A DNA stretch of 64,000 bases, taken from NCBI GenBank assembly GCA_017466445.1, contig JAFTUC010000005.1, forward strand, positions 1 to 64,000, in the 5' to 3' direction. The DNA comes from Clostridia bacterium. Its GTDB lineage: Bacteria > Bacillota > Clostridia > Oscillospirales > CAG-272. How positions within the stretch are numbered: position 1 is the stretch's first letter; each line of letters starts with the position of its first letter. Position numbers and translations under genes: made by a program. This document shows, piece after piece, positions 12,958-57,341 of the stretch. The notes under the pieces were generated by a model. The model was not told the DNA's origin. It searched no databases and saw only the letters and a program-made list of their open reading frames with translations.

Positions 12958-14028
12958 ATGAAAAAATTAAATTTAGCAATCATCGGTCAGGGACGAAGCG
13001 GAAAAAACATACACGGAGCATTTTTGCGCGGAAGCAGCAATACCTTTTTTAACGTAAGATACGTTGTTGAAACAGACGAGGAAAGGCGCAAGGTGTCCGA
13101 GAGCATCTATCCGAACGCCGAGGTAATAAGCGATTACAGAGATCTGTTTGAGAAAACGGATATCGACCTCGTAGTAAACGCAACTCCCTCCGACACTCAT
13201 TTTTCTATAACCAAGGAGCTTCTTGAAAACAAAAAGAACGTGCTCGTTGAAAAGCCCTTCTCGAGAAGCCGTTACGAATGCGACACTCTGATACGACTGG
13301 CCAAGGAAAACGGAGTCCATCTTGCGGTCTTCCAGCAGTCATTTATGGCGCCCTATTACAAAAAGACGCTTGAGGTCATAGATTCGGGAATACTCGGAGA
13401 GATAAAGCAGATAAACGTCAGATTCAACGGATTTTCGAGACGTTGGGACTGGCAAACTCTTCAGAAGAAGTGCGCAGGCGGAATATACAACACAGGTCCT
13501 CACCCGATCGGTCTCGGTCTCGGATATCTCGGATTTGACAAAAACGCGCGAGTCGAATATTCCTCACTCGGATGTGCACTCACAAGCGGTGACAGTGACG
13601 ACTACGCAAAGATCATACTCAGCGCTCCCGAAAAGCCTACCGTCGATATTGAGGTAAGCTCGATAGATCCCTTCTCCGATTACACGGTCAAGATCCTCGG
13701 AAGCCGCGGATGCTTCAAGACAACTATTACAAATTACAAGTGCGTATATATCGTGGACGGAGAAAATCCCGAGCGCGACGTTATAGAATCATCGCTTAAG
13801 GATGAGTCGGGAGAGCCTATCTACTGCTCCGAGAGGCTTATAAAGCACGAAGAGTCGGATAGCTATAGCGGAAGCGCGTTCGACGTTGGCACGCACGATC
13901 TGTACGAGGAGCTCTACTATCTCATATCAGAGGGACGTCCGATGAGTGTAACGCCCGAAATGGCGGCATCCATAATCTCGGTCATCGAAACGGTCCACGC
14001 ACAGAATCCGCTTCCCGTTAAATTCTAA
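12958..14028 (+). CDS. Gfo/Idh/MocA-family sugar oxidoreductase
   Basis: 356 residues. The N-terminal Rossmann fold begins MKKLNLAIIGQGRSGKNIHG; the glycine loop is GQGRSG rather than the commoner GxGxxG. The conserved EKP motif (VEKPF, about 98-101) is present with the catalytic Lys, and a GIYNTGPHPIGLGLGY segment occupies the place of the family's D/N-x3-H region. Such enzymes oxidise or epimerise sugars or inositols with NAD(P). AAAGGAAG favours the ATG at 12958 over 12952. The divergent AraC-GH32 operon suggests linked sugar metabolism. Confidence 0.85.
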   Translation: MKKLNLAIIGQGRSGKNIHGAFLRGSSNTFFNVRYVVETDEERRKVSESIYPNAEVISDYRDLFEKTDIDLVVNATPSDTHFSITKELLENKKNVLVEKPFSRSRYECDTLIRLAKENGVHLAVFQQSFMAPYYKKTLEVIDSGILGEIKQINVRFNGFSRRWDWQTLQKKCAGGIYNTGPHPIGLGLGYLGFDKNARVEYSSLGCALTSGDSDDYAKIILSAPEKPTVDIEVSSIDPFSDYTVKILGSRGCFKTTITNYKCVYIVDGENPERDVIESSLKDESGEPIYCSERLIKHEESDSYSGSAFDVGTHDLYEELYYLISEGRPMSVTPEMAASIISVIETVHAQNPLPVKF

Positions 14029-14033
14029 AGCAT

Positions 14034-14063
14034 ACGGTTCGGTCATTTTTCAGACCGAACCGT
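14034..14063 (+). terminator. Rho-independent terminator
   Basis: ACGGTTCGGTC and GACCGAACCGT form an 11-bp perfect stem, followed by ATTACTTT. It ends the oxidoreductase transcript. Confidence 0.75.
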
Positions 14064-14159
14064 ATTACTTTATGCCGAAATATTTCTGTCCGAAACGAAT
14101 ATTTTTGCCATCTATGAAATTTTTTTTTGAAAATAAGCAAAATTTTTTCAAAAAAACTA

Positions 14160-14188
14160 TTGACAAACGGTTTTCGTAGTGCTATAAT
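14160..14188 (+). promoter_or_regulatory. Promoter of T-box operon
   Basis: Perfect TTGACA (14160-14165) and TATAAT (14183-14188) with 17-bp spacing; transcription should start at about 14195. Confidence 0.9.
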
Positions 14189-14194
14189 GTGATC

Positions 14195-14495
14195 ACTTTA
14201 GCGAGCAAAAGTGATGATCGGAAAGAAGTAATCCTCCGAAAAACTTTCAGAGAGCCGCTGTTTGGTGCGAAGCGGTAGCGAGTAGGTCGATGAAATACAT
14301 TCCGGGAGCTGCGGGTTGAAATCTCTTGACAGGATCGAGATGATGTGTAGGCCTCGCCGGGTGCGACCGTAATATCGCAGGGACATTATCTGTGCCCCGT
14401 GAGGCTCCTGCCGTAAGACAGAAGTGAAGCAGAGTGGTAACACGTATTTTTTACGTCTCTGCGTCGATATTTATCGACGCAGAGACTTTTTTTGT
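14195..14495 (+). ncRNA. T-box riboswitch, tyrosine-type (specifier UAC)
   Basis: Stem I features appear in order: GAAAGAAGTA (14221-14230) with the loop-E AGTA, AGAGAG bulge (14249-14254), GGTG apical motif (14264-14267), and the specifier-loop 3' side. CGGAA (14219-14223) pairs with TTCCG (14300-14304), which places the specifier triplet at 14296-14298 = UAC, followed by the usual A. The layout matches the well-studied glyQS leader. The T-box AGAGTGGTAACACG is at 14431-14444; its TGGT would pair with a tRNA ending ACCA, as tRNA-Tyr does. A 14-bp terminator (14455-14486) with T7 competes with the antiterminator. Uncharged tRNA should switch the ABC operon on. Confidence 0.85.
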
Positions 14496-14556
14496 TGTAA
14501 ATAGCAGACATTCCAGCCTGTTAAAATAAATTTATTATCAAAAGGAGATTTCCATT

Positions 14557-15534
14557 ATGAAAATCAAACGTTTACTCAGCGCAGTGCTTATTACGGCACT
14601 TGTACTCACGACCATGACCCTTGTTTCCTGTAGCAGCAAAAAAGACAAGTACACCGTAGGTGTTATTCAGCTCATCACCCACGATGCTCTTGATGCCGCT
14701 ACCGAAGGCTTTATCAAGGCTCTTGAAGACAAGCTCGGCAAGGACAATGTCGAGATCGACGTTCAGAACGCCGCAGGCTCGCCTGACACCTGTGCTACCA
14801 TAGCAAAATCCTTCGTAACAAAGAAGGTCGATCTGATCATGGCAAACGCGACCTCCGCTCTCCAGGCGGCTTACAACGCTACCGCTACCATTCCGATACT
14901 CGGAACCTCCGTAACCGAATACGGTGTTGCTCTCGGAATTGAAAACTTCAGCGGAACCGTCGGAGAAAATGTATCCGGAACCTCTGACCTTGCAGATCTT
15001 GCCAAGCAGGCGCAGATGATAATCGACCTTGTACCCAACGCTCAAAAGGTCGGCATGCTCTACTGCTCTGCAGAGGCAAATTCCGATTACCAGGTAAAGA
15101 AGGTAAGCGAGTACCTCAAAAAGAAGGGACTCACATGTGTCAACTACGAGTTCTCCGATTCTAACGACGTTACGTCCGTAACTCAGAAGGCTGCATCCGA
15201 ATGCGACGCTATCTACATTCCCACCGACAACACCGCCGCATCCTGTGCCGAAACGATCTACGGTGCTATGGGAGAAAACAAAAAGCCTATTATTGCGGGC
15301 GAAAGCGGAATCTGCGCCGGCTGCGGAATAGCTACCCTTTCCATCAGCTACTACGATCTCGGATACAAGACCGGTGAAATGGCTGCTTCCATACTCAAAA
15401 AGGAAGCCGAGATAGAAAAAATGCCTATCGCATACGCTCCTCAGGAGACAAAGAAATACAACAAGGCGATCTGCAACGACCTCGGAATCGACACCAAGGC
15501 TCTTGAGGATGCAGGATACACCGCTCTTGACTAA
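14557..15534 (+). CDS. ABC transporter substrate-binding lipoprotein, TrpX/PF04392 type
   Basis: 325 residues. A lipoprotein signal has the lipobox LVSC with Cys25. The mature part matches the ABC_sub_bind (PF04392) family: VGVIQLITHDALDAATEGF, NAAGSPDTCATIAKSFV, ATIPILGTSVTEYG and the C-terminal SYYDLGYKTGEMAA. This family includes TrpX of tryptophan transporters and resembles periplasmic-binding fold type I. It is the first gene behind the tyrosine-type T-box, so tyrosine or another aromatic compound is the inferred ligand. AAAGGAG precedes the ATG. Confidence 0.85.
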   Translation: MKIKRLLSAVLITALVLTTMTLVSCSSKKDKYTVGVIQLITHDALDAATEGFIKALEDKLGKDNVEIDVQNAAGSPDTCATIAKSFVTKKVDLIMANATSALQAAYNATATIPILGTSVTEYGVALGIENFSGTVGENVSGTSDLADLAKQAQMIIDLVPNAQKVGMLYCSAEANSDYQVKKVSEYLKKKGLTCVNYEFSDSNDVTSVTQKAASECDAIYIPTDNTAASCAETIYGAMGENKKPIIAGESGICAGCGIATLSISYYDLGYKTGEMAASILKKEAEIEKMPIAYAPQETKKYNKAICNDLGIDTKALEDAGYTALD

Positions 15535-15621
15535 AAAAGCTTTTACATTCCTTTATATTCCGAGGCGCGGTCTTAGCATACCGCGTCTCGGATAAGCCAT
15601 TTAAACAAATAGGAGGATTTT

Positions 15622-16590
15622 ATGGAAACGTTGCTTAATTATTTTTCATCTCTGCCCGCAGCAATTGCTCAGGGTATGATCTGGGGAATTATGGCGATCG
15701 GCGTTTACATCACCTACAAGGTCCTCGACATTGCGGATCTGACCGTTGACGGAAGCATCTGCACGGGAGCCGCGGTGTGTGCCGCCATGATGACTATGGG
15801 ATATTCTCTCCCGATCGCCATGATCTGCTCGTTTATAGCAGGTATGCTTGCCGGACTGCTCACGGGAATCTTTCACACGTTTATGGGGATACCCGCGATC
15901 CTTGCAGGTATCCTTACACAGCTTATGCTTTGGTCGATAAATCTCAAGATAATGGGACTTGCGCTTGAGAAGCAAAGTGCCGCAAACCTCCCGCTCTCCG
16001 CGAGAAATTTTGACACTCTGATATCTATGCTCGACATAAACCGCACACTTATAGTAATTTCTATTGCCTGCGTACTGCTTATTGCCATTCTATACTGGTT
16101 TTTCGGCACCGAATACGGCTCGGCACTCCGTGCGACCGGTGCAAATCTCGGAATGAGCCGCGCTCAAGGTATAAACACAAACGCTACCAAGATAGTCGGT
16201 CTTGTTCTCTCGAACGGCATAGTAGCGCTCTCGGGAGCTCTTCTGGCACAGTATCAGGGAAACGCCGATATAAACATGGGCCGCGGAGCGATCGTTATCG
16301 GTCTTGCGGCAGTAATAATCGGAGAGGCACTTTTCGGATGGTTCGCCAAAACAAATTTTGCTCTGAAGCTCACGACCGTAGTTCTCGGCGGAATAGTTTA
16401 CTTTATTGTATACTCTACCGTAATCTACTTGGGTCTCGATTCCAACTACCTGAAGATGCTCTCCGCTATCGTGGTTGCAGTATTTCTTGCAGTTCCCTAC
16501 TGGAAAAACAAATATTTTTCGGGAAAACGGATCAAAAATCACACGCAAAAAAGCAAGTCGGATAAGGAGGTAAAGAACAATGATGCTTGA
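15622..16590 (+). CDS. ABC transporter permease, TrpY/BPD_transp_2 type
   Basis: 322 residues with about nine membrane helices, in the branched-chain-type permease family (PF02653). It shows the family's GTEYGSALRATGANLGMSRAQGIN cytoplasmic loop (about 165-190), which contacts the ATPase, and GLVLSNGIVALSGALLAQYQG. A basic C-terminal tail follows. It forms the membrane channel of the PF04392-type importer. Its end overlaps the ATPase gene by 11 bases, so stoichiometric expression is likely. Confidence 0.85.
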   Translation: METLLNYFSSLPAAIAQGMIWGIMAIGVYITYKVLDIADLTVDGSICTGAAVCAAMMTMGYSLPIAMICSFIAGMLAGLLTGIFHTFMGIPAILAGILTQLMLWSINLKIMGLALEKQSAANLPLSARNFDTLISMLDINRTLIVISIACVLLIAILYWFFGTEYGSALRATGANLGMSRAQGINTNATKIVGLVLSNGIVALSGALLAQYQGNADINMGRGAIVIGLAAVIIGEALFGWFAKTNFALKLTTVVLGGIVYFIVYSTVIYLGLDSNYLKMLSAIVVAVFLAVPYWKNKYFSGKRIKNHTQKSKSDKEVKNNDA

Positions 16591-17377
16591 ATTAAATGAC
16601 GTACGAAAGACCTTCAATCCGGGCACGGTAAACGAAAAGCACGCTCTTAACGGAGTGGATCTTCACTTAAATGCGGGAGATTTCGTTACCATAATAGGTG
16701 GAAACGGTGCGGGAAAATCAACTACGCTTAATGCGGTAGCCGGTGTTTGGCCGATAGATTCGGGAGACATAATCATCGACGGTATGAACGTAAATCGGCT
16801 CTGCGAGCACAAGCGGGCAAAATATCTCGGACGTGTTTTTCAGGATCCGATGAACGGTACCGCCGCTACGATGGAGATACAGGAAAATCTTGCTATTGCG
16901 GCAAGGCGCGGCGACAGAAGAACGCTCAGTTGGGGCATAACAAAGAAGGAAAAGGAGCAATACAAGGAGCTTCTCAAGATACTTGACCTCGGACTTGAAG
17001 AAAGAATGAGCGCAAAGGTGGGACTTTTATCGGGCGGACAGCGTCAGGCACTCACCCTTCTTATGGCGTCGATAAAGAAGCCGAAGATCCTCCTTCTTGA
17101 CGAGCACACCGCGGCACTCGATCCCAAGACCGCCGCCAAGGTGCTTGAGATAACGCAAAAGCTGATAAACGAAAACGAGCTTACCGCAATGATGGTAACT
17201 CACAACATGAAGGACGCTATCACCTATGGAAACCGTCTTATCATGATGCACGAGGGACGCATCATCTTCGAAGCCTGCGGCGAGGAAAAGAAAAAGCTCA
17301 CAATAGATGATCTTATGAAAAAATTCTCGCAGACGAGCGGTCAGGAATTTTCAAACGACCGTACTCTTCTAAGCTGA
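16580..17377 (+). CDS. ABC transporter ATP-binding protein, TrpZ type
   Basis: 265 residues. Walker A GGNGAGKST (about 40-48), signature LSGGQRQ (about 150-156), Walker B LLLLDEHTA (about 170-178) and the switch His in MMVTHNM are all present. It energises the importer encoded by the two upstream genes. AAGGAGG at 16564-16570 inside the permease gene gives the ATG at 16580. The operon ends at a strong terminator 4 bases after the stop. Confidence 0.9.
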   Translation: MMLELNDVRKTFNPGTVNEKHALNGVDLHLNAGDFVTIIGGNGAGKSTTLNAVAGVWPIDSGDIIIDGMNVNRLCEHKRAKYLGRVFQDPMNGTAATMEIQENLAIAARRGDRRTLSWGITKKEKEQYKELLKILDLGLEERMSAKVGLLSGGQRQALTLLMASIKKPKILLLDEHTAALDPKTAAKVLEITQKLINENELTAMMVTHNMKDAITYGNRLIMMHEGRIIFEACGEEKKKLTIDDLMKKFSQTSGQEFSNDRTLLS

Positions 17378-17413: not shown

Positions 17414-18484
17414 TCAGTTTGAAGTTCTCTTATCCTCAAGCTCGCGCGTACCCTCAAGCGCTTCCACGTTTTCTATAACAACGTCCCTCATATCTCCGGC
17501 AAGCGAGATCGCAGCATACATAGCTCTTGAGTGAACGTTACGAACCGAAATATTATAGGTCTCGTCCGACGTAGCGTGACGCGATCCGTAAAGATGCGTA
17601 TCTCCTATCCTTACACCGTATATTCCCTTTTCCATATACGGACAGTCCTTTGACATATCCGTCACATTATCGATCTCTATATCATGAAGCCTTACACCAC
17701 CCTGATTAAGAAGTCGAACGTTGGTACAGAACGCGGACGTAGCGATATTTCTGATCCTTACGTTATATATATCTGACGAAAGTCCCTCAACCGCAAACTC
17801 TTTTTCAAGTCTTCCGAAAAGACCTGTAAGCGCTACCGAATCGTCCTCGGTAAAGCCGCTTATATTTTCTATCAAAATATCGTGACATCCCCGGCGCAGG
17901 TCGATACCGTCGGCATTTTTGACGAGTATATCAGCATATTTCTCGTGCTTAAGTCCGTGAGTCTCGACTCCGTTTTCGTCCACCATTATATCACACGCCT
18001 TGAAATCGATATCAAAGATCTTTCCGTTTGCGCAGTAAACAAAATTCAGTGCCCACCAGCGCTGATTATGGCAGGACAAACCCGATACCTCAAAGCCGTC
18101 GACGTTAGTAAACAGGATCAGATTATTCTTCCAGATAGGCGGAAGTCCGTTTTTGAGCTGAGTCTTTTCGGAAAGCATATTATACTTTCCGCCGTCGAGA
18201 AGCGCTCCGTTTTTACCGATTATCCTGATATTACGGTCTCTTCCTTCGACGGTCCTTCCGATATCGGTACTGTGATTTTCATTCACAAACATATTAGAAT
18301 AGCATCCGTCTGCCATTTTAAGATGGCAAGAATCAAGAATGAGCGTAAAATCGCTCGGGATACGGACCTCCCTGTCTATTATAAGGTCCTTATCTACCGT
18401 TACGCGATCAAGACCGCGGCATCTTGCGTCCTCAATAAGAGCGCTTATATACTCATATCCGTTTGATAAAAAAGCTTTTTCCAT
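17414..18484 (-). CDS. Cytoplasmic beta-helix protein, GH28-like
   Basis: 356 residues with repeated short beta-helix turns (NIRIIGKNGALLDGG, GFEVSGLSCHNQRWWAL, DILIENISGFTEDDSVALTG, NVRIRNIATS). The pair NADGIDL and EDDSVAL sits where GH28 polygalacturonases have NTDGID and GDDCIA, so the acidic pair may be kept, while the GHG histidine motif is not seen. There is no signal peptide. It is the last gene of the six-gene operon and starts 23 bases after the preceding stop. A pectin-like or deoxy-sugar oligosaccharide substrate is possible but unproven. Confidence 0.65.
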   Translation of the reverse strand: MEKAFLSNGYEYISALIEDARCRGLDRVTVDKDLIIDREVRIPSDFTLILDSCHLKMADGCYSNMFVNENHSTDIGRTVEGRDRNIRIIGKNGALLDGGKYNMLSEKTQLKNGLPPIWKNNLILFTNVDGFEVSGLSCHNQRWWALNFVYCANGKIFDIDFKACDIMVDENGVETHGLKHEKYADILVKNADGIDLRRGCHDILIENISGFTEDDSVALTGLFGRLEKEFAVEGLSSDIYNVRIRNIATSAFCTNVRLLNQGGVRLHDIEIDNVTDMSKDCPYMEKGIYGVRIGDTHLYGSRHATSDETYNISVRNVHSRAMYAAISLAGDMRDVVIENVEALEGTRELEDKRTSN

Positions 18485-18507
18485 AGTAAAATCTTCCTTT
18501 ACAGCAG

Positions 18508-19893
18508 TTACATTCCGAGCTCGAAGCAATAGAGATTTCCGTAGCTCCAATTATAATCGCTCCCGTTATGCCGATCAAACGTGAGCCAAAAATATCTCGT
18601 TCTGCTTCCGAGCCTTACGGGGATCACGCTTCCCCAGCCTCTGAAGCCCCCATCGGGGTAATCGAATTTCGCGTTTTTCATACCGTCTTTACTGTATATG
18701 CGGTAATTTGAGGTCGATTTGAAATCATTGCCGCAAACGAAGAACAGCTCCCCATCTACTTTTACAAACGATCCCCCCGTTTCGGCACCGGGATATCCTT
18801 TGCCGATATATTTATACCGTGCAAACGGGTCATCCGACTCAAAAAAGGTATACACATACTGCTTTTGTTCAGGATCGATACGGCAGATCGCCATAAGCCA
18901 TCTGTTATTTTCCGCATCGTATAGGATATCGGGATCCTCGTCACCCTCAAATCCCGCAAAGAGCGAAATATCGGAAGTATCCGGCGCTTTATCCACAATA
19001 CTCACGTCCACTACGTTAATTCCGAATCTCGGATCCCCATCAAAGGCACCGTGTGCAAGGATATGTCCGTGACCGAACGAGCTCAGCCATGTCAGGTACT
19101 GCTTTTTATTTCTGTCATAAACTATGACCGAGGCAAGGAAGTTACACCATCTGCCGTCACCGACGTCGTAAAAGAGCGCTCCTGTCATACCGATCTCTGA
19201 GGTTCCGGGAATCCACGAGAACACGCCCTGAAACGCACCCTCCTGCATGCGGACAGATGCAGAAAACCATATCCTTCCCTGCTCGTATATAACGTCACCG
19301 TTTTCATATTTTATAGGTCGCATATCCGCAAGCGAGATGCCGTTATCAACATAGGAAAGCACCTCCTTTACCACAAGCTTACCGCTTGCAACAAGGCAGA
19401 CGTGTGAGCTTGAAAACAGGGCGTACCGATTGGAATCGGCAAATTTTTCATCGTAGAAGGTGGTTATATATTCGGCTTTTCCATTTATTTTAAAATAAAT
19501 GTCAAACGCTCTCGGACGGCAGGACACCACAAGAGTATGAGCATTTTCTAAGCCTTCAGGTACATCAATAGTCTCAAGGTGGTCATCGCAGGAGTAAACT
19601 ATCTTATTTCCGTTCACCGTTACGGCAGCCTCCGTATTCGGAAGCTTAAAGGAGAATCCGACCTCTCCGTCTGTAAGATCAAAGGAGGTCTCATAGCTCG
19701 CAAAGGGAAAAAACTGACAAAAAAGGCGCTTTACCATCCCTTTATCTATTTTGTAAAGATTTCGGTCAACGCTCTCCTTAAGATCCTCGCTTTTTTCAAG
19801 CACGGGATAAAGATCTCCTCTTTTATCATTTACAAAATCCTTAAAAAAGGTCATTTCTCCAAGTCCTATCCTCATATTTTTATAAGTGGACAT
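18508..19893 (-). CDS. Five-bladed beta-propeller glycosidase-like protein
   Basis: 461 residues. The first 180 residues look like a beta-sandwich (EVGFSFKLPNTEAAVTVNGNK, FDIYFKINGKAEYITTFYDE). After that come propeller-type blades with GH43/GH32-like phrases (FAGFEGDEDPDILYDAENNRWLMAICR, YIGKGYPGAETGGSFVKVDGELFFVCGND, GWGSVIPVRLGSRTRYFWLTFDR). Acidic residues in DEDPD could be catalytic. The order sandwich-then-propeller is unlike GH32, where the sandwich is C-terminal. There is no signal peptide. AGAGGAA fixes the start at 19893. Confidence 0.6.
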   Translation of the reverse strand: MSTYKNMRIGLGEMTFFKDFVNDKRGDLYPVLEKSEDLKESVDRNLYKIDKGMVKRLFCQFFPFASYETSFDLTDGEVGFSFKLPNTEAAVTVNGNKIVYSCDDHLETIDVPEGLENAHTLVVSCRPRAFDIYFKINGKAEYITTFYDEKFADSNRYALFSSSHVCLVASGKLVVKEVLSYVDNGISLADMRPIKYENGDVIYEQGRIWFSASVRMQEGAFQGVFSWIPGTSEIGMTGALFYDVGDGRWCNFLASVIVYDRNKKQYLTWLSSFGHGHILAHGAFDGDPRFGINVVDVSIVDKAPDTSDISLFAGFEGDEDPDILYDAENNRWLMAICRIDPEQKQYVYTFFESDDPFARYKYIGKGYPGAETGGSFVKVDGELFFVCGNDFKSTSNYRIYSKDGMKNAKFDYPDGGFRGWGSVIPVRLGSRTRYFWLTFDRHNGSDYNWSYGNLYCFELGM

Positions 19894-19941
19894 TGAAAAT
19901 TTCCTCTTGAACTGAAAGTACAAGCAACTCATATATACCTC

Positions 19942-21027
19942 TCAAAAACGTTTTATTTCAAAGCAGTCGCCGCAAAGTGTCGGAAATTCCTGTTTTCCCC
20001 ATGGCTTATGCCATGTAAGCGAGCCGTGAAGACGCTTATCGGGATCGTAAACTCCGTATTTAAGTGCCGAAACAGATGGCTTAAGTCCTGTGCCGCATTC
20101 AAAATTAAGCGAGCCGATCTGAAGAAAGCACGGTCCCTTTTCCATACCGAAAAGGTCATCTGACGTCGTTGAAAGAATCACGGTATTATGCTGCGCGACT
20201 ATATGACCTATTACCGAAAGATGCGAGCAATCGTGGAACGTAATACCCTCCTCGCAGTTATGGATATACAGATAATCGGCAACGACGTGCTCACCGCAGA
20301 CAAGTCCGTAACGAAATCCCTGGACCGCAACGTTTCTGAGAACGTTATCGTCATTCTGATCTCCAGAGGTAACAAGTCCGGCTGTATGGCACGGATTTTT
20401 CTGCAGTTCTTTTCCGAGCAGAGTATCGCCCACCTGGTCATTAAGGCAAAACTGCGAATCGGTAATATTTACGCGCGATACGTTCTGAAGATTGACGGCA
20501 GACTGAGTGGGGTACATTTTTCCGTGATCAAGATGAACGCGGAATTCAAGATTTGTAATCGAGAAATTAGAGACACTGAAATGTCCCTTGCACGAATTAC
20601 CCTCGGGCGCGGCAAGTATTGAATAGGGGCGTTCGTTCGGATCATGCACCTCGGGTGCCTCCCAATCGGAAAAGATCCTCGTATTGTCATTATGAAGGGT
20701 TTTGAAGGTAGTGGGAAGAAAATTATTTTTTACCGCCTCCACGGGACGCACCTGATACGAGTTCAAAAGGCGACAAGGCATCTCTCCCTCAAGCTGCACG
20801 TTAGCATCTCCCTCAGGGATCACAAGCTGTGCGCGGACTGCTTTTCCGTCTATCTCCTCCACGGCGGGCGATGCAACGCGGTATCCGCCCTTTGTATACG
20901 GAAAAAGTATTTTTCCGCCTCCGCGTCCTGCGGCAAAATCGATCGCCGCCTGAATTGCGGCAGTATCGTCGGTAATTCCGTCGCCCTTCGCGCCGAAATC
21001 AAAAACATTTATACCAAAACACGCCAT
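19942..21027 (-). CDS. Pectate-lyase superfamily (PL-3-type) beta-helix protein
   Basis: 361 residues. The N-terminus NVFDFGAKGDGITDDTAAIQAAIDFAAGRGGGKILFP is the hallmark of the Pectate_lyase_3 (PF12708) fold shared by phage tailspikes, GH28/GH55 enzymes and epimerases. Helix turns follow (FSVSNFSITNLEFRV, VNITDSQFCLNDQVGDTLLGK). It lacks a signal peptide and so differs from secreted pectinases. AAAGGAGC lies before the ATG at 21027. It sits 15 bases after the ComB-like gene in the operon. Confidence 0.7.
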   Translation of the reverse strand: MACFGINVFDFGAKGDGITDDTAAIQAAIDFAAGRGGGKILFPYTKGGYRVASPAVEEIDGKAVRAQLVIPEGDANVQLEGEMPCRLLNSYQVRPVEAVKNNFLPTTFKTLHNDNTRIFSDWEAPEVHDPNERPYSILAAPEGNSCKGHFSVSNFSITNLEFRVHLDHGKMYPTQSAVNLQNVSRVNITDSQFCLNDQVGDTLLGKELQKNPCHTAGLVTSGDQNDDNVLRNVAVQGFRYGLVCGEHVVADYLYIHNCEEGITFHDCSHLSVIGHIVAQHNTVILSTTSDDLFGMEKGPCFLQIGSLNFECGTGLKPSVSALKYGVYDPDKRLHGSLTWHKPWGKQEFPTLCGDCFEIKRF

Positions 21028-54605: not shown

Positions 54606-55784
54606 TTATTTAGCGAGCGCCTTCTTGATATCGCTTGCGATATCGGTCTTTTCCCACGCGACTCCGAGATCCTCGCGTCCCATATGTCCGTACGCTGCAA
54701 GCTGCGCATAGATCGGCTTTCTGAGATCAAAGCGCTCGATTATTGCGGCAGGTCTGAGATCGACGAGATCCACGATAGCATCCGCGATCGTTTCGTTTGA
54801 ATATACGGACGTACCGAAGGTATCGACCATTACGGAGACCGGTCTTGCGACTCCGATAGCGTAAGCAAGCTGAACCTCACACTTCTTAGCGATTCCCGAT
54901 GCTACCACGTTCTTTGCGATATATCTCGCCGCATAAGCCGCAGTTCTATCCACCTTTGTGGGATCCTTACCTGAGAACGCTCCGCCCCCGTGTCTTCCGT
55001 ATCCGCCGTAGGTATCGACGATTATCTTTCTACCGGTAAGTCCGCTGTCACCCTGAGGTCCTCCGATAACGAAGCGACCGGTGGGATTTACGTAGATCTT
55101 GGTGTTTTCATCAAGAAGCTTTTCATCGACTGTGGTCTCTATAACATTTGCGATTATATCTTTCCTTATCTTATCCTGAGTCACCTCGGGATCGTGCTGA
55201 GAAGAAATCACTATGGTATCGACTCTTACGGGCGTATCGCCGTCATATTCTATCGAGACCTGAGTCTTTCCGTCCGCGCGGAGATATGGGAGCGTACCGT
55301 TCTTTCTCACCTCGGTAAGCTTTTTAGCGAGCTTATGTGCAAGCGAGATAGGAAGCGGCATGAGTTCGGGAGTCTCATCGCAGGCAAAGCCGAACATCAT
55401 TCCCTGATCTCCCGCACCCGTATCGTACTTATCCCCGTCTCCGTTTTTTGCCTCGAGCGATCTGTCAACGCCCATTGCGATATCGGGAGACTGACTGTGT
55501 ATCGAGCTGATTACTGCGCAGGTATCGCAGTCAAAACCGTATTTTGCTCTATCGTAGCCGATCTCACGGAGGGTCTCTCTGATTATATCGTCATATTTTA
55601 CGACCGCGTCGGTGGTTATTTCGCCCATTACGGAAATGATTCCGGTGGTTGCTGTAGTTTCGCACGCAACTCTCGACATAGGATCCTGAGCAAGGATCGC
55701 ATCAAGTATTGAATCCGAGATCTTATCGCAGATCTTGTCGGGATGTCCCTCGGTTACAGATTCTGACGTAAAAAGTTTTTTCAT
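54606..55784 (-). CDS. metK: S-adenosylmethionine synthetase
   Basis: 392 residues, the family's length. Motifs: [20 protein letters not shown] at the start (ATP/Mg site), [86 protein letters not shown] (P-loop-like and K+ site), and [18 protein letters not shown] near the end. It makes SAM from methionine and ATP. It is controlled by the SAM-I riboswitch directly upstream. Confidence 0.97.
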
Positions 55785-55848: not shown

Positions 55849-55948
55849 ATTTATATTGCTCTCATCTTTTAGGAATTGGCACCTTCCCGAATATCGGCAG
55901 GTTGCCGTAGGATCAGCGGGCCTATCCCTCCCCTACTCTTGATGATCT
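55849..55948 (-). ncRNA. SAM-I (S-box) riboswitch
   Basis: On the minus strand the S-box core is clear: ATCAAGAGTAGGGGAGGGAT, GGCCCGCTGAT, CGGCAACCTGCC, GGTGCCAATTCCT and closing GATGAGAG. The P1-P4 junction elements are in the right order and a terminator follows. SAM binding should stop metK transcription. Confidence 0.92.
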
Positions 55949-56554: not shown

Positions 56555-57142
56555 TCAGCGGTGAAGCAGTCGCGAAAGCCGTTTATAAAGTATCAGCGAT
56601 ATCAGCGAACACAGTATACCTTTTATAAAATTGAACGGCACCACCGCAAAAAGAACGAAGGTGAACTTATCGTTTATTATTCCCGTTATCGATTTTCCTG
56701 CCGCGATTATCTGCTCGAGAGGCATAAACGCCGAATACATCGGCAGCATTACGAAATAGTTTATAAGTCCTCCCGCGATTCCTATCGAAACGATTCCGAC
56801 GAGCATTCCGACAAGTGCGCCCTTTATATTTTTGTGATATTTATATATAAGAGCCGCCGGCACGGTCAGGCAGCATCCGGTGACAAAGTTAGCAAGCTCT
56901 CCGACAAAACCAGTCGTCGTTCCGTTAATAAGTAGGTTGAGGACATTTTTAACGAGTTCCATTATCGCAGCGGCTATCGGTCCGAGCGCAAATCCACCCA
57001 TAAGTATGACTGATTCGCTGAGATCGAGCTCATAGAAACCGGGCGCGACAAAAAGAAGCGGAAATTCAAAAAGCATTATAACGACCGCAAGTGCAGAAAG
57101 AATTGCGATCTTCACTGAATATTTAAGTTTGGAATTTTTCAT
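56555..57142 (-). CDS. ribU: Riboflavin ECF transporter S component
   Basis: 195 residues with six membrane helices. The signature LFVAPGFYELDLSESVILMGGFALGPIAAAIMELVKNVLNLL matches RibU, with the E-L-D region that binds riboflavin. It forms a complex with the shared ECF ATPases and EcfT, not encoded in this window. The ATG at 57142 has a GGAG at good spacing. The FMN riboswitch just upstream confirms the flavin link. Confidence 0.92.
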   Translation of the reverse strand: MKNSKLKYSVKIAILSALAVVIMLFEFPLLFVAPGFYELDLSESVILMGGFALGPIAAAIMELVKNVLNLLINGTTTGFVGELANFVTGCCLTVPAALIYKYHKNIKGALVGMLVGIVSIGIAGGLINYFVMLPMYSAFMPLEQIIAAGKSITGIINDKFTFVLFAVVPFNFIKGILCSLISLILYKRLSRLLHR

Positions 57143-57213
57143 TTTTTTCTCCACATATTAAAAATATCGGAGAAAAGACAGTATAAAATGCCGTACACAC
57201 GGGAAATATTCTA

Positions 57214-57321
57214 TCTTTTCTCATCCGGACTTTACCGTCGGTGCAGGAATCTCACCTGCTCGGCGCCATATCTGGCGTTTGCGGACTTTACCGCCGGTGT
57301 GGAATTTCACCAAGCTCTCAA
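57214..57321 (-). ncRNA. FMN riboswitch (RFN element)
   Basis: On the minus strand: GAGAGCTTGGTGAAATTCC, CACCGGCGGTAAAGTCCGC, GCAGGTGAGATTCCTGCACC, and GACGGTAAAGTCCGGATGAG. These are the conserved blocks of the six-stem RFN element in order. It should switch off the ribU transcript when FMN is plentiful. Confidence 0.95.
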
Positions 57322-57341
57322 AGTATAGTATATAAAAATCA

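What the first reader, a model, noticed from the sequence alone, without database searches (positions are those of the whole stretch)
14195..17377. Tyrosine T-box controlling a TrpXYZ-like ABC transporter
Seen: promoter, Stem I with AGTA, AGAGAG and GGTG, bottom helix CGGAA/TTCCG fixing the specifier at 14296-14298 as UAC, T-box with TGGT, then a 14-bp terminator. Known: PF04392-type TrpXYZ transporters are linked with tryptophan T-boxes; bacterial tRNA-Trp has discriminator G73, tRNA-Tyr has A73. The TGGT agrees with A73, so both the codon and the discriminator point to tyrosine. Inference: this transporter family also imports tyrosine or its precursor.
Basis: partly seen in the sequence, partly recalled or inferred. 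Interest (0 to 1): 0.75.

Follow-up and report, generated by a model that had tools for sequence, protein, structure and literature searches.

The report
Tyrosine-sensing switch on amino-acid importer
A bacterium carries an RNA switch that appears to read whether its tyrosine tRNA is charged and sits in front of a three-gene importer whose nearest solved relative binds tyrosine; the switch type and the importer type are each known, and the fresh part is a pattern in relatives where the switch codon separates tryptophan-type from tyrosine/phenylalanine-type importers.

Summary
Rfam finds a full-length T-box leader at 14205-14463 (RF00230, 100.5 bits, cut-off 93), behind a 12-of-12 sigma-70-type promoter and with a 14-bp terminator. 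The specifier is UAC at 14296-14298. The Rfam alignment, column-locked alignment with related leaders and covariation of the helix below the bulge fix it (51 double-changed cells, 0 of 500 shuffles). The genome's own tRNA-Tyr has anticodon GUA and A73, which fits UGGU.

The leader very probably senses tRNA-Tyr, and tyrosine import is likely. But tyrosine binding in this family is already published: the closest solved relative, C. difficile CD0873, binds tyrosine.

Among 71 deduplicated T-box-led PF04392 operons examined, the distant TrpX-like proteins have UGG (28 of 28). The window's side of the tree has UAC (25, one ambiguous) or UUC (18), no UGG. Five genomes hold both kinds. UAC and UUC interchange at least six times on the tree. 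The CD0873 tyrosine-pocket residues are present here but also in UGG- and UUC-led proteins, so they are not diagnostic. Ordinary parts, with a modestly new and testable pattern.

The parts
14160..14188 (+). sigma-70-type promoter TTGACA-17-TATAAT
   Evidence: 12 of 12 matches; 5 promoter-like sites found in 14020-14620, shuffles gave 1.5 on average
14205..14463 (+). T-box leader, Stem I to antiterminator
   Evidence: RF00230, 100.5 bits against cut-off 93, full length; also the own-genome search
14218..14223 (+). 5' arm of the helix below the specifier bulge
   Evidence: pairs with 14300-14305; this helix is 91.7% paired and each of its 6 pairs has a change on both sides in 34 leaders
14296..14298 (+). 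specifier codon UAC (tyrosine)
   Evidence: Rfam alignment; column lock; bases 2-4 rule
14300..14305 (+). 3' arm of the helix below the specifier bulge
14435..14438 (+). T-box bulge UGGU, complementary to the end ACCA of uncharged tRNA-Tyr
   Evidence: sequence; own tRNA-Tyr has A73
14429..14462 (+). antiterminator, GCAGAG with CTCTGC
   Evidence: Rfam alignment; sequence
14455..14493 (+). intrinsic terminator, 14-bp stem and T run
14557..15534 (+). substrate-binding protein (325 aa), CD0873-like, probably binds tyrosine; likely a lipoprotein
   Evidence: PF04392 197 bits; best PDB match 6HNI, E 5.7e-53; residues E249 and Y265 match CD0873 E263 and Y279; lipobox LVSC read by eye from the sequence
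15622..16590 (+). ABC permease (322 aa)
   Evidence: PF02653 93.4 bits
16580..17377 (+). ABC ATPase (265 aa)
   Evidence: PF00005 95.2 bits

Best explanation
A transcription-terminating T-box riboswitch senses the charging of tRNA-Tyr. When tyrosine is short, uncharged tRNA-Tyr pairs its GUA anticodon with the UAC specifier and its ACCA end with the UGGU bulge. This holds the antiterminator, and RNA polymerase reads through into a three-gene ABC importer. When tRNA-Tyr is charged, the 14-bp terminator forms. The importer is a CD0873-type aromatic amino acid system whose main ligand is probably tyrosine. Shown: RNA anatomy, codon register, matching own tRNA, gene families, and UAC in the nearest T-box-led relatives. 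Inferred: actual tRNA binding, read-through, and the ligand.
For:: complete T-box with promoter and terminator; covarying helix fixes the register; own tRNA-Tyr GUA with A73, own tRNA-Trp CCA with G73; the same genome's T-box before a trpB-like gene reads UGG with TGGC, an internal contrast; the window sits in a starred 5-row group, all UAC; UGG lies on the other side of one branch (28 of 28 rows, support 94); the nearest solved relative, CD0873, binds tyrosine (KD 94 uM in the paper). E/Y pocket pair in 25 of 25 UAC-led proteins; five genomes carry one UGG-led TrpX-like operon and one UAC- or UUC-led window-type operon.
Against: No experiment. The pocket pair is not diagnostic: it is also in 15 of 28 UGG-led and 14 of 18 UUC-led proteins. 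UAC and UUC interchange between relatives (6 changes), so ligand and regulator need not match, or the importer takes both. T-box control is patchy: 24 of 51 window-type proteins in the own family with enough upstream DNA, and L080 (77% identical) has none. The genome has prephenate dehydrogenase- and dehydratase-type genes, so it may not depend on import. The tree warns that the CD0873 row has a long branch and an unsure place.
Confidence: 0.8

Rival explanations
1. The leader senses tRNA-Tyr, but the importer is a general aromatic amino acid importer (Tyr and Phe, perhaps Trp); the codon only sets which shortage turns it on.
For: UAC and UUC leaders interchange at least six times among proteins that mostly keep the same two pocket residues. 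VC_1101 was solved with Phe and SP1069 with Trp in the same fold.
Against: CD0873 was reported to bind tyrosine specifically in a screen of 20 amino acids. No UGG was found on the window's side of the tree.
Confidence: 0.3
2. It is a tryptophan importer of the TrpXYZ kind under a misread T-box.
For: TrpX is the only NCBIfam model that matches the binding protein. UGGU can also face G73.
Against: The score is below the TrpX cut-off (227.1 against 390). Trp-type leaders have UGG in the same columns where the window has UAC, and their proteins fall in another part of the tree. The tyrosine at the Y265 position is said to keep Trp out in CD0873, although many UGG-led proteins have it too.
Confidence: 0.04
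3. The ligand is a tyrosine precursor or derivative (for example a hydroxyphenyl keto acid or a small peptide) rather than tyrosine itself.
For: T-boxes are reported to control uptake of precursors in L. plantarum methionine supply (PMC2494555, passage).
Against: The same mode of binding the amino and acid groups is reported for the three solved relatives.
Confidence: 0.08

Closest known systems
Clostridioides difficile CD0873 (6HNI, 6HNJ, 6HNK), tyrosine-binding lipoprotein of an ABC importer
   Same: Best solved match by sequence (E 5.7e-53), 39% identity, E and Y at the two specificity positions, on the window's side of the tree (support 91, long branch)
   Different: The amino acid transporter rows of the C. 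difficile T-box table that I saw list CD0750, CD1716, CD1774-1776 and CD1988, and the paper's main text does not hold the name CD0873 (PMC11477304, passages); here the operon has a Tyr T-box
Streptococcus suis trpXYZ with Trp T-box (PMC9382623, passages)
   Same: TrpX-type binding protein, permease and ATPase behind a terminating T-box
   Different: Specifier for tryptophan, and growth data there point to tryptophan; here UAC and a different clade of binding protein. S. suis TrpX itself was not put in the tree; S. pneumoniae SP1069 was
Tyr T-boxes of tyrS and of NhaC transporters (Wels 2008, PMC2494555, passages)
   Same: Tyr T-box controlling tyrosine charging or supply
   Different: In the flattened text of Table 1 that I saw (14 genomes), ABC stands in the Trp row but not in the Tyr or Phe rows

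Membership tests
T-box leader (RF00230) | Covariance-model match over the gathering score, full length | tested here: met
   100.5 bits, cut-off 93, 1-219 of 219
T-box leader (RF00230) | Mutually exclusive antiterminator and terminator | tested here: met
   14429-14462 and 14455-14486 share 14457-14462; by sequence, not by experiment
T-box leader (RF00230) | Binds tRNA and responds to charging | not testable with these tools
   needs the bench
Tyrosine-specific T-box | Specifier UAC or UAU at bases 2-4 from the bulge end | tested here: met
   UAC 14296-14298
Tyrosine-specific T-box | UGGN complementary to the discriminator base of the genome's tRNA-Tyr | tested here: met
   UGGU and A73; weakly diagnostic
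PF04392 ABC_sub_bind | Pfam gathering score | tested here: met
   197 bits, cut-off 25.9
TrpX (NCBIfam NF041285) | Curated cut-off of the equivalog model | tested here: not met
   227.1 bits, cut-off 390
CD0873-like tyrosine-binding protein | Equivalents of Glu-263 and Tyr-279 | tested here: met
   E249 and Y265; not diagnostic, also in UGG- and UUC-led proteins
CD0873-like tyrosine-binding protein | Tyrosine binding | not testable with these tools
   needs purified protein

The most novel reading that the evidence does not exclude
T-box codons are natural labels of ligand preference in PF04392 importers. The family split into tryptophan branches and a tyrosine/phenylalanine branch, and within the latter the leader codon has switched between UAC and UUC at least six times, either with a matching change of the binding protein's ligand or without one (regulatory rewiring of a dual Tyr/Phe importer). 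The 43 such operons found here would form a ready test set.
Probability: 0.55. Interest if true: 0.5.

Novelty: new member of a known kind. Interest (0 to 1): 0.35.

Why it matters
It gives a regulatory handle on ligand annotation for an importer family whose members carry names such as tryptophan (NCBIfam) or sugar-family transport (the PDB name of CD0873). Tyrosine uptake is linked in the literature to p-cresol production by C. difficile. The repeated UAC/UUC interchange makes it testable whether a one-base change in a leader follows, precedes or ignores a change in the transported amino acid.

Tried and rejected
Pocket residues as proof of tyrosine: rejected, because the E/Y pair also occurs with UGG and UUC leaders. 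Residues that track UAC against UUC: a column scan gave candidates such as window residue M95 (M in 22 of 25 UAC and 3 of 18 UUC rows), but there are only 5 independent pairs on starred branches, too few to reach significance (its output was cut and I saw only part). UGGU as proof of A73: weak. Stem I by energy folding: no signal; one antiterminator fold was cut too short, at 14459, to be informative. Structure prediction never started. Plasmid search: no match.

Limits of the survey. The UGG leaders that were counted all come from the window's own GTDB family. From the family search (whose match list is itself cut) I took 90 loci besides the window's own; the rest are samples of order and class (95 sources, some of them family loci again), 16 phylum loci and 80 of at least 598 named-genome stretches. 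The Stem I model was trained on 40 of these same leaders, so leaders of another make-up could be missed. Codons were read from aligned columns and entered by hand. Leader L107 is ambiguous: the model and I read UAC, but alignment A6 puts ACC in the specifier columns; it was counted UAC. Of 85 protein rows with a leader, L081, L239 and L263 were dropped as weak, leaving 82, and near-duplicates were then removed, leaving 71. In one search leader L034 was paired with a weak second hit; its codon and TGGC are taken. 'Own family' goes by my list of loci, so named loci of that family may be counted as outside. In one search one measure, further pair types, is lower than in shuffles (11 against 13.9), as strict pairing would give.

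Full report
The leader. Rfam places a full-length T-box at 14205-14463 (100.5 bits, E 5.5e-21, gathering score 93). It begins 16 bases after the end of a perfect TTGACA-17-TATAAT promoter (14160-14188) and is followed by a 14-bp terminator with a seven-T tail (14455-14486; -25.5 kcal/mol, z -8.97). The antiterminator's 3' arm lies in the terminator's 5' arm. Stem I folded on its own gave no excess stability (z 0.56).

The codon. In the Rfam alignment UAC (14296-14298) lies on the specifier columns. In an unconstrained MAFFT alignment of 40 Stem I sequences from PF04392 operons, the columns holding the window's UAC hold UGG, UAC or UUC in the others; the covariance-model alignments agree apart from a few weak or ambiguous hits. 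In 34 leaders of the window's type the two helices at the base of Stem I covary: 93.8% of cells paired, 51 cells changed on both sides against a shuffled mean of 18.1 (0 of 500), 7 pairs with a change on both sides against 4.2 (2 of 500), and sliding by 1 to 3 columns drops pairing to 28-45%. UAC also obeys TBDB's bases 2-4 rule (PMC7778990, passage).

The tRNA. The window's genome (2.09 Mb, 86.6% complete, 6.3% contamination) has tRNA-Tyr with GUA and A73 and tRNA-Trp with CCA and G73. Its T-box before a trpB-like gene has UGG and TGGC (gene named by eye), the expected contrast within one genome. The own-genome Rfam search gave four T-box matches, two of them over the cut-off, the window's among these.

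The importer. The binding protein is PF04392 (197 bits), with a PF02653 permease and an ABC ATPase. It does not reach the TrpX equivalog cut-off. It is the only PF04392 match in the genome as held. Its best solved match is 6HNI, CD0873 of C. difficile. Bradshaw and others report that CD0873 binds tyrosine, with Glu-263 bonding the ring hydroxyl and Tyr-279 excluding tryptophan, while VC_1101 (Phe) has Ala/Tyr and SP1069 (Trp) Ala/Gln at these places (PMC6816091, passages). The window protein has E249 and Y265. However, the same E/Y pair is found in 15 of 28 UGG-led and 14 of 18 UUC-led proteins as well as in 25 of 25 UAC-led ones, so it supports an aromatic pocket, not tyrosine in particular.

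The survey. PF04392 was found in 101 of 196 genomes of the window's family. The Stem I model was run on 91 family sources, 95 order and class sources, 80 named loci and 16 phylum loci. Of 85 protein rows with a leader, three weak ones were dropped and near-duplicates removed, leaving 71: 28 UGG, all in proteins far from the window's; 24 UAC (L107 ambiguous) and 10 UUC in proteins that score like the window's; 1 UAC and 8 UUC in proteins of middle score, one of which (L283) the tree puts among the window's type. On a maximum-likelihood tree (quick method, midpoint root) UGG needs one change (support 94) and UAC and UUC six each; CD0873 lies on the UAC/UUC side (support 91), but the tree flags its branch as long and its place as unsure. 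Rfam, run on 14 of these loci, found a T-box in each; 13 reach the gathering score and L047 has 92.7 against 93. The bulge is TGGC in 14, TGGT in 12 and not found in 2 of the 28 UGG leaders; among the 43 others it is TGGT in 40 and not found in 3. Five genomes (G039, G064, G088, G101, G162) carry one UGG-led and one UAC- or UUC-led operon, each time with the protein of the matching clade.

Patchiness. Among deduplicated proteins with at least 300 bases upstream (13 of 267 had less), 24 of 51 window-type proteins in the own family and 9 of 150 elsewhere have such a leader; 27 of 33 TrpX-like ones in the family do; of the middle-score proteins 0 of 5 in the family and 9 of 14 elsewhere. L080, 77% identical to the window's protein, has none.

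Print. No held paper contains pheXYZ or tyrXYZ. Three hold a Tyr or Phe T-box phrase: in Wels 2008, as far as the flattened table text shows, ABC stands for Trp but not for Tyr or Phe; TBDB is the second; the third I saw only in the listing. A search pairing T-box riboswitch with CD0873, PF04392 or COG2984 gave four papers, three listed; in two of these CD0873 appears only as a cited title, and the third (PMC12753941) I saw only in the listing. Steglich 2018 does not hold the word T-box. Vitreschak 2008 is not held and TBDB's tables were not seen, so an earlier record is possible.

Mechanism and verdict. The evidence fits a tyrosine T-box that opens a CD0873-type importer when tRNA-Tyr is uncharged. 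The tyrosine-sensing step is nearly certain on sequence grounds. The ligand is likely tyrosine, but a Tyr/Phe importer is not excluded. Each part is of a known kind. The codon split between clades and the repeated UAC/UUC interchange are the parts worth following.

Noticed in passing
L001 1501-1726 (window's genome, contig C32 95803-96028, minus strand; outside the window): T-box before an aspS-like gene (named by eye) whose codon, by position, reads AAC (asparagine); no asnS (TIGR00457) match reaches its cut-off in this incomplete genome, which would fit an AspRS that also charges tRNA-Asn.
   Followed up: partly
window 55859-55948 and 57209-57328, minus strand: SAM riboswitch before a SAM synthetase gene (54606-55784) and FMN riboswitch before an ECF transporter substrate-specific component (56555-57154); both look ordinary.
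   Followed up: yes
L275, L276, L278-L282, L284 (phylum-level relatives, 41-45% identical): A clade of PF04392 proteins with mostly UUC leaders and one sister pair that differs in codon (L281 UUC, L284 UAC).
   Followed up: partly
L209 2096-2222 and 3482-3608: Two UUC Stem I elements on one contig, one before and one after the binding protein gene.
   Followed up: no
L250 5649-5773 and L237 5481-5604: UGG Stem I elements a few kilobases downstream of window-type binding protein genes that have no T-box of their own; what they control was not looked at.
   Followed up: no
L195 5235-5356 and 5422-5546: Two further weak Stem I hits in tandem downstream, with other codons.
   Followed up: no
window 17414-21027, minus strand: Reading frames beside the operon that look, by eye, like carbohydrate-active proteins; not searched.
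   Followed up: no
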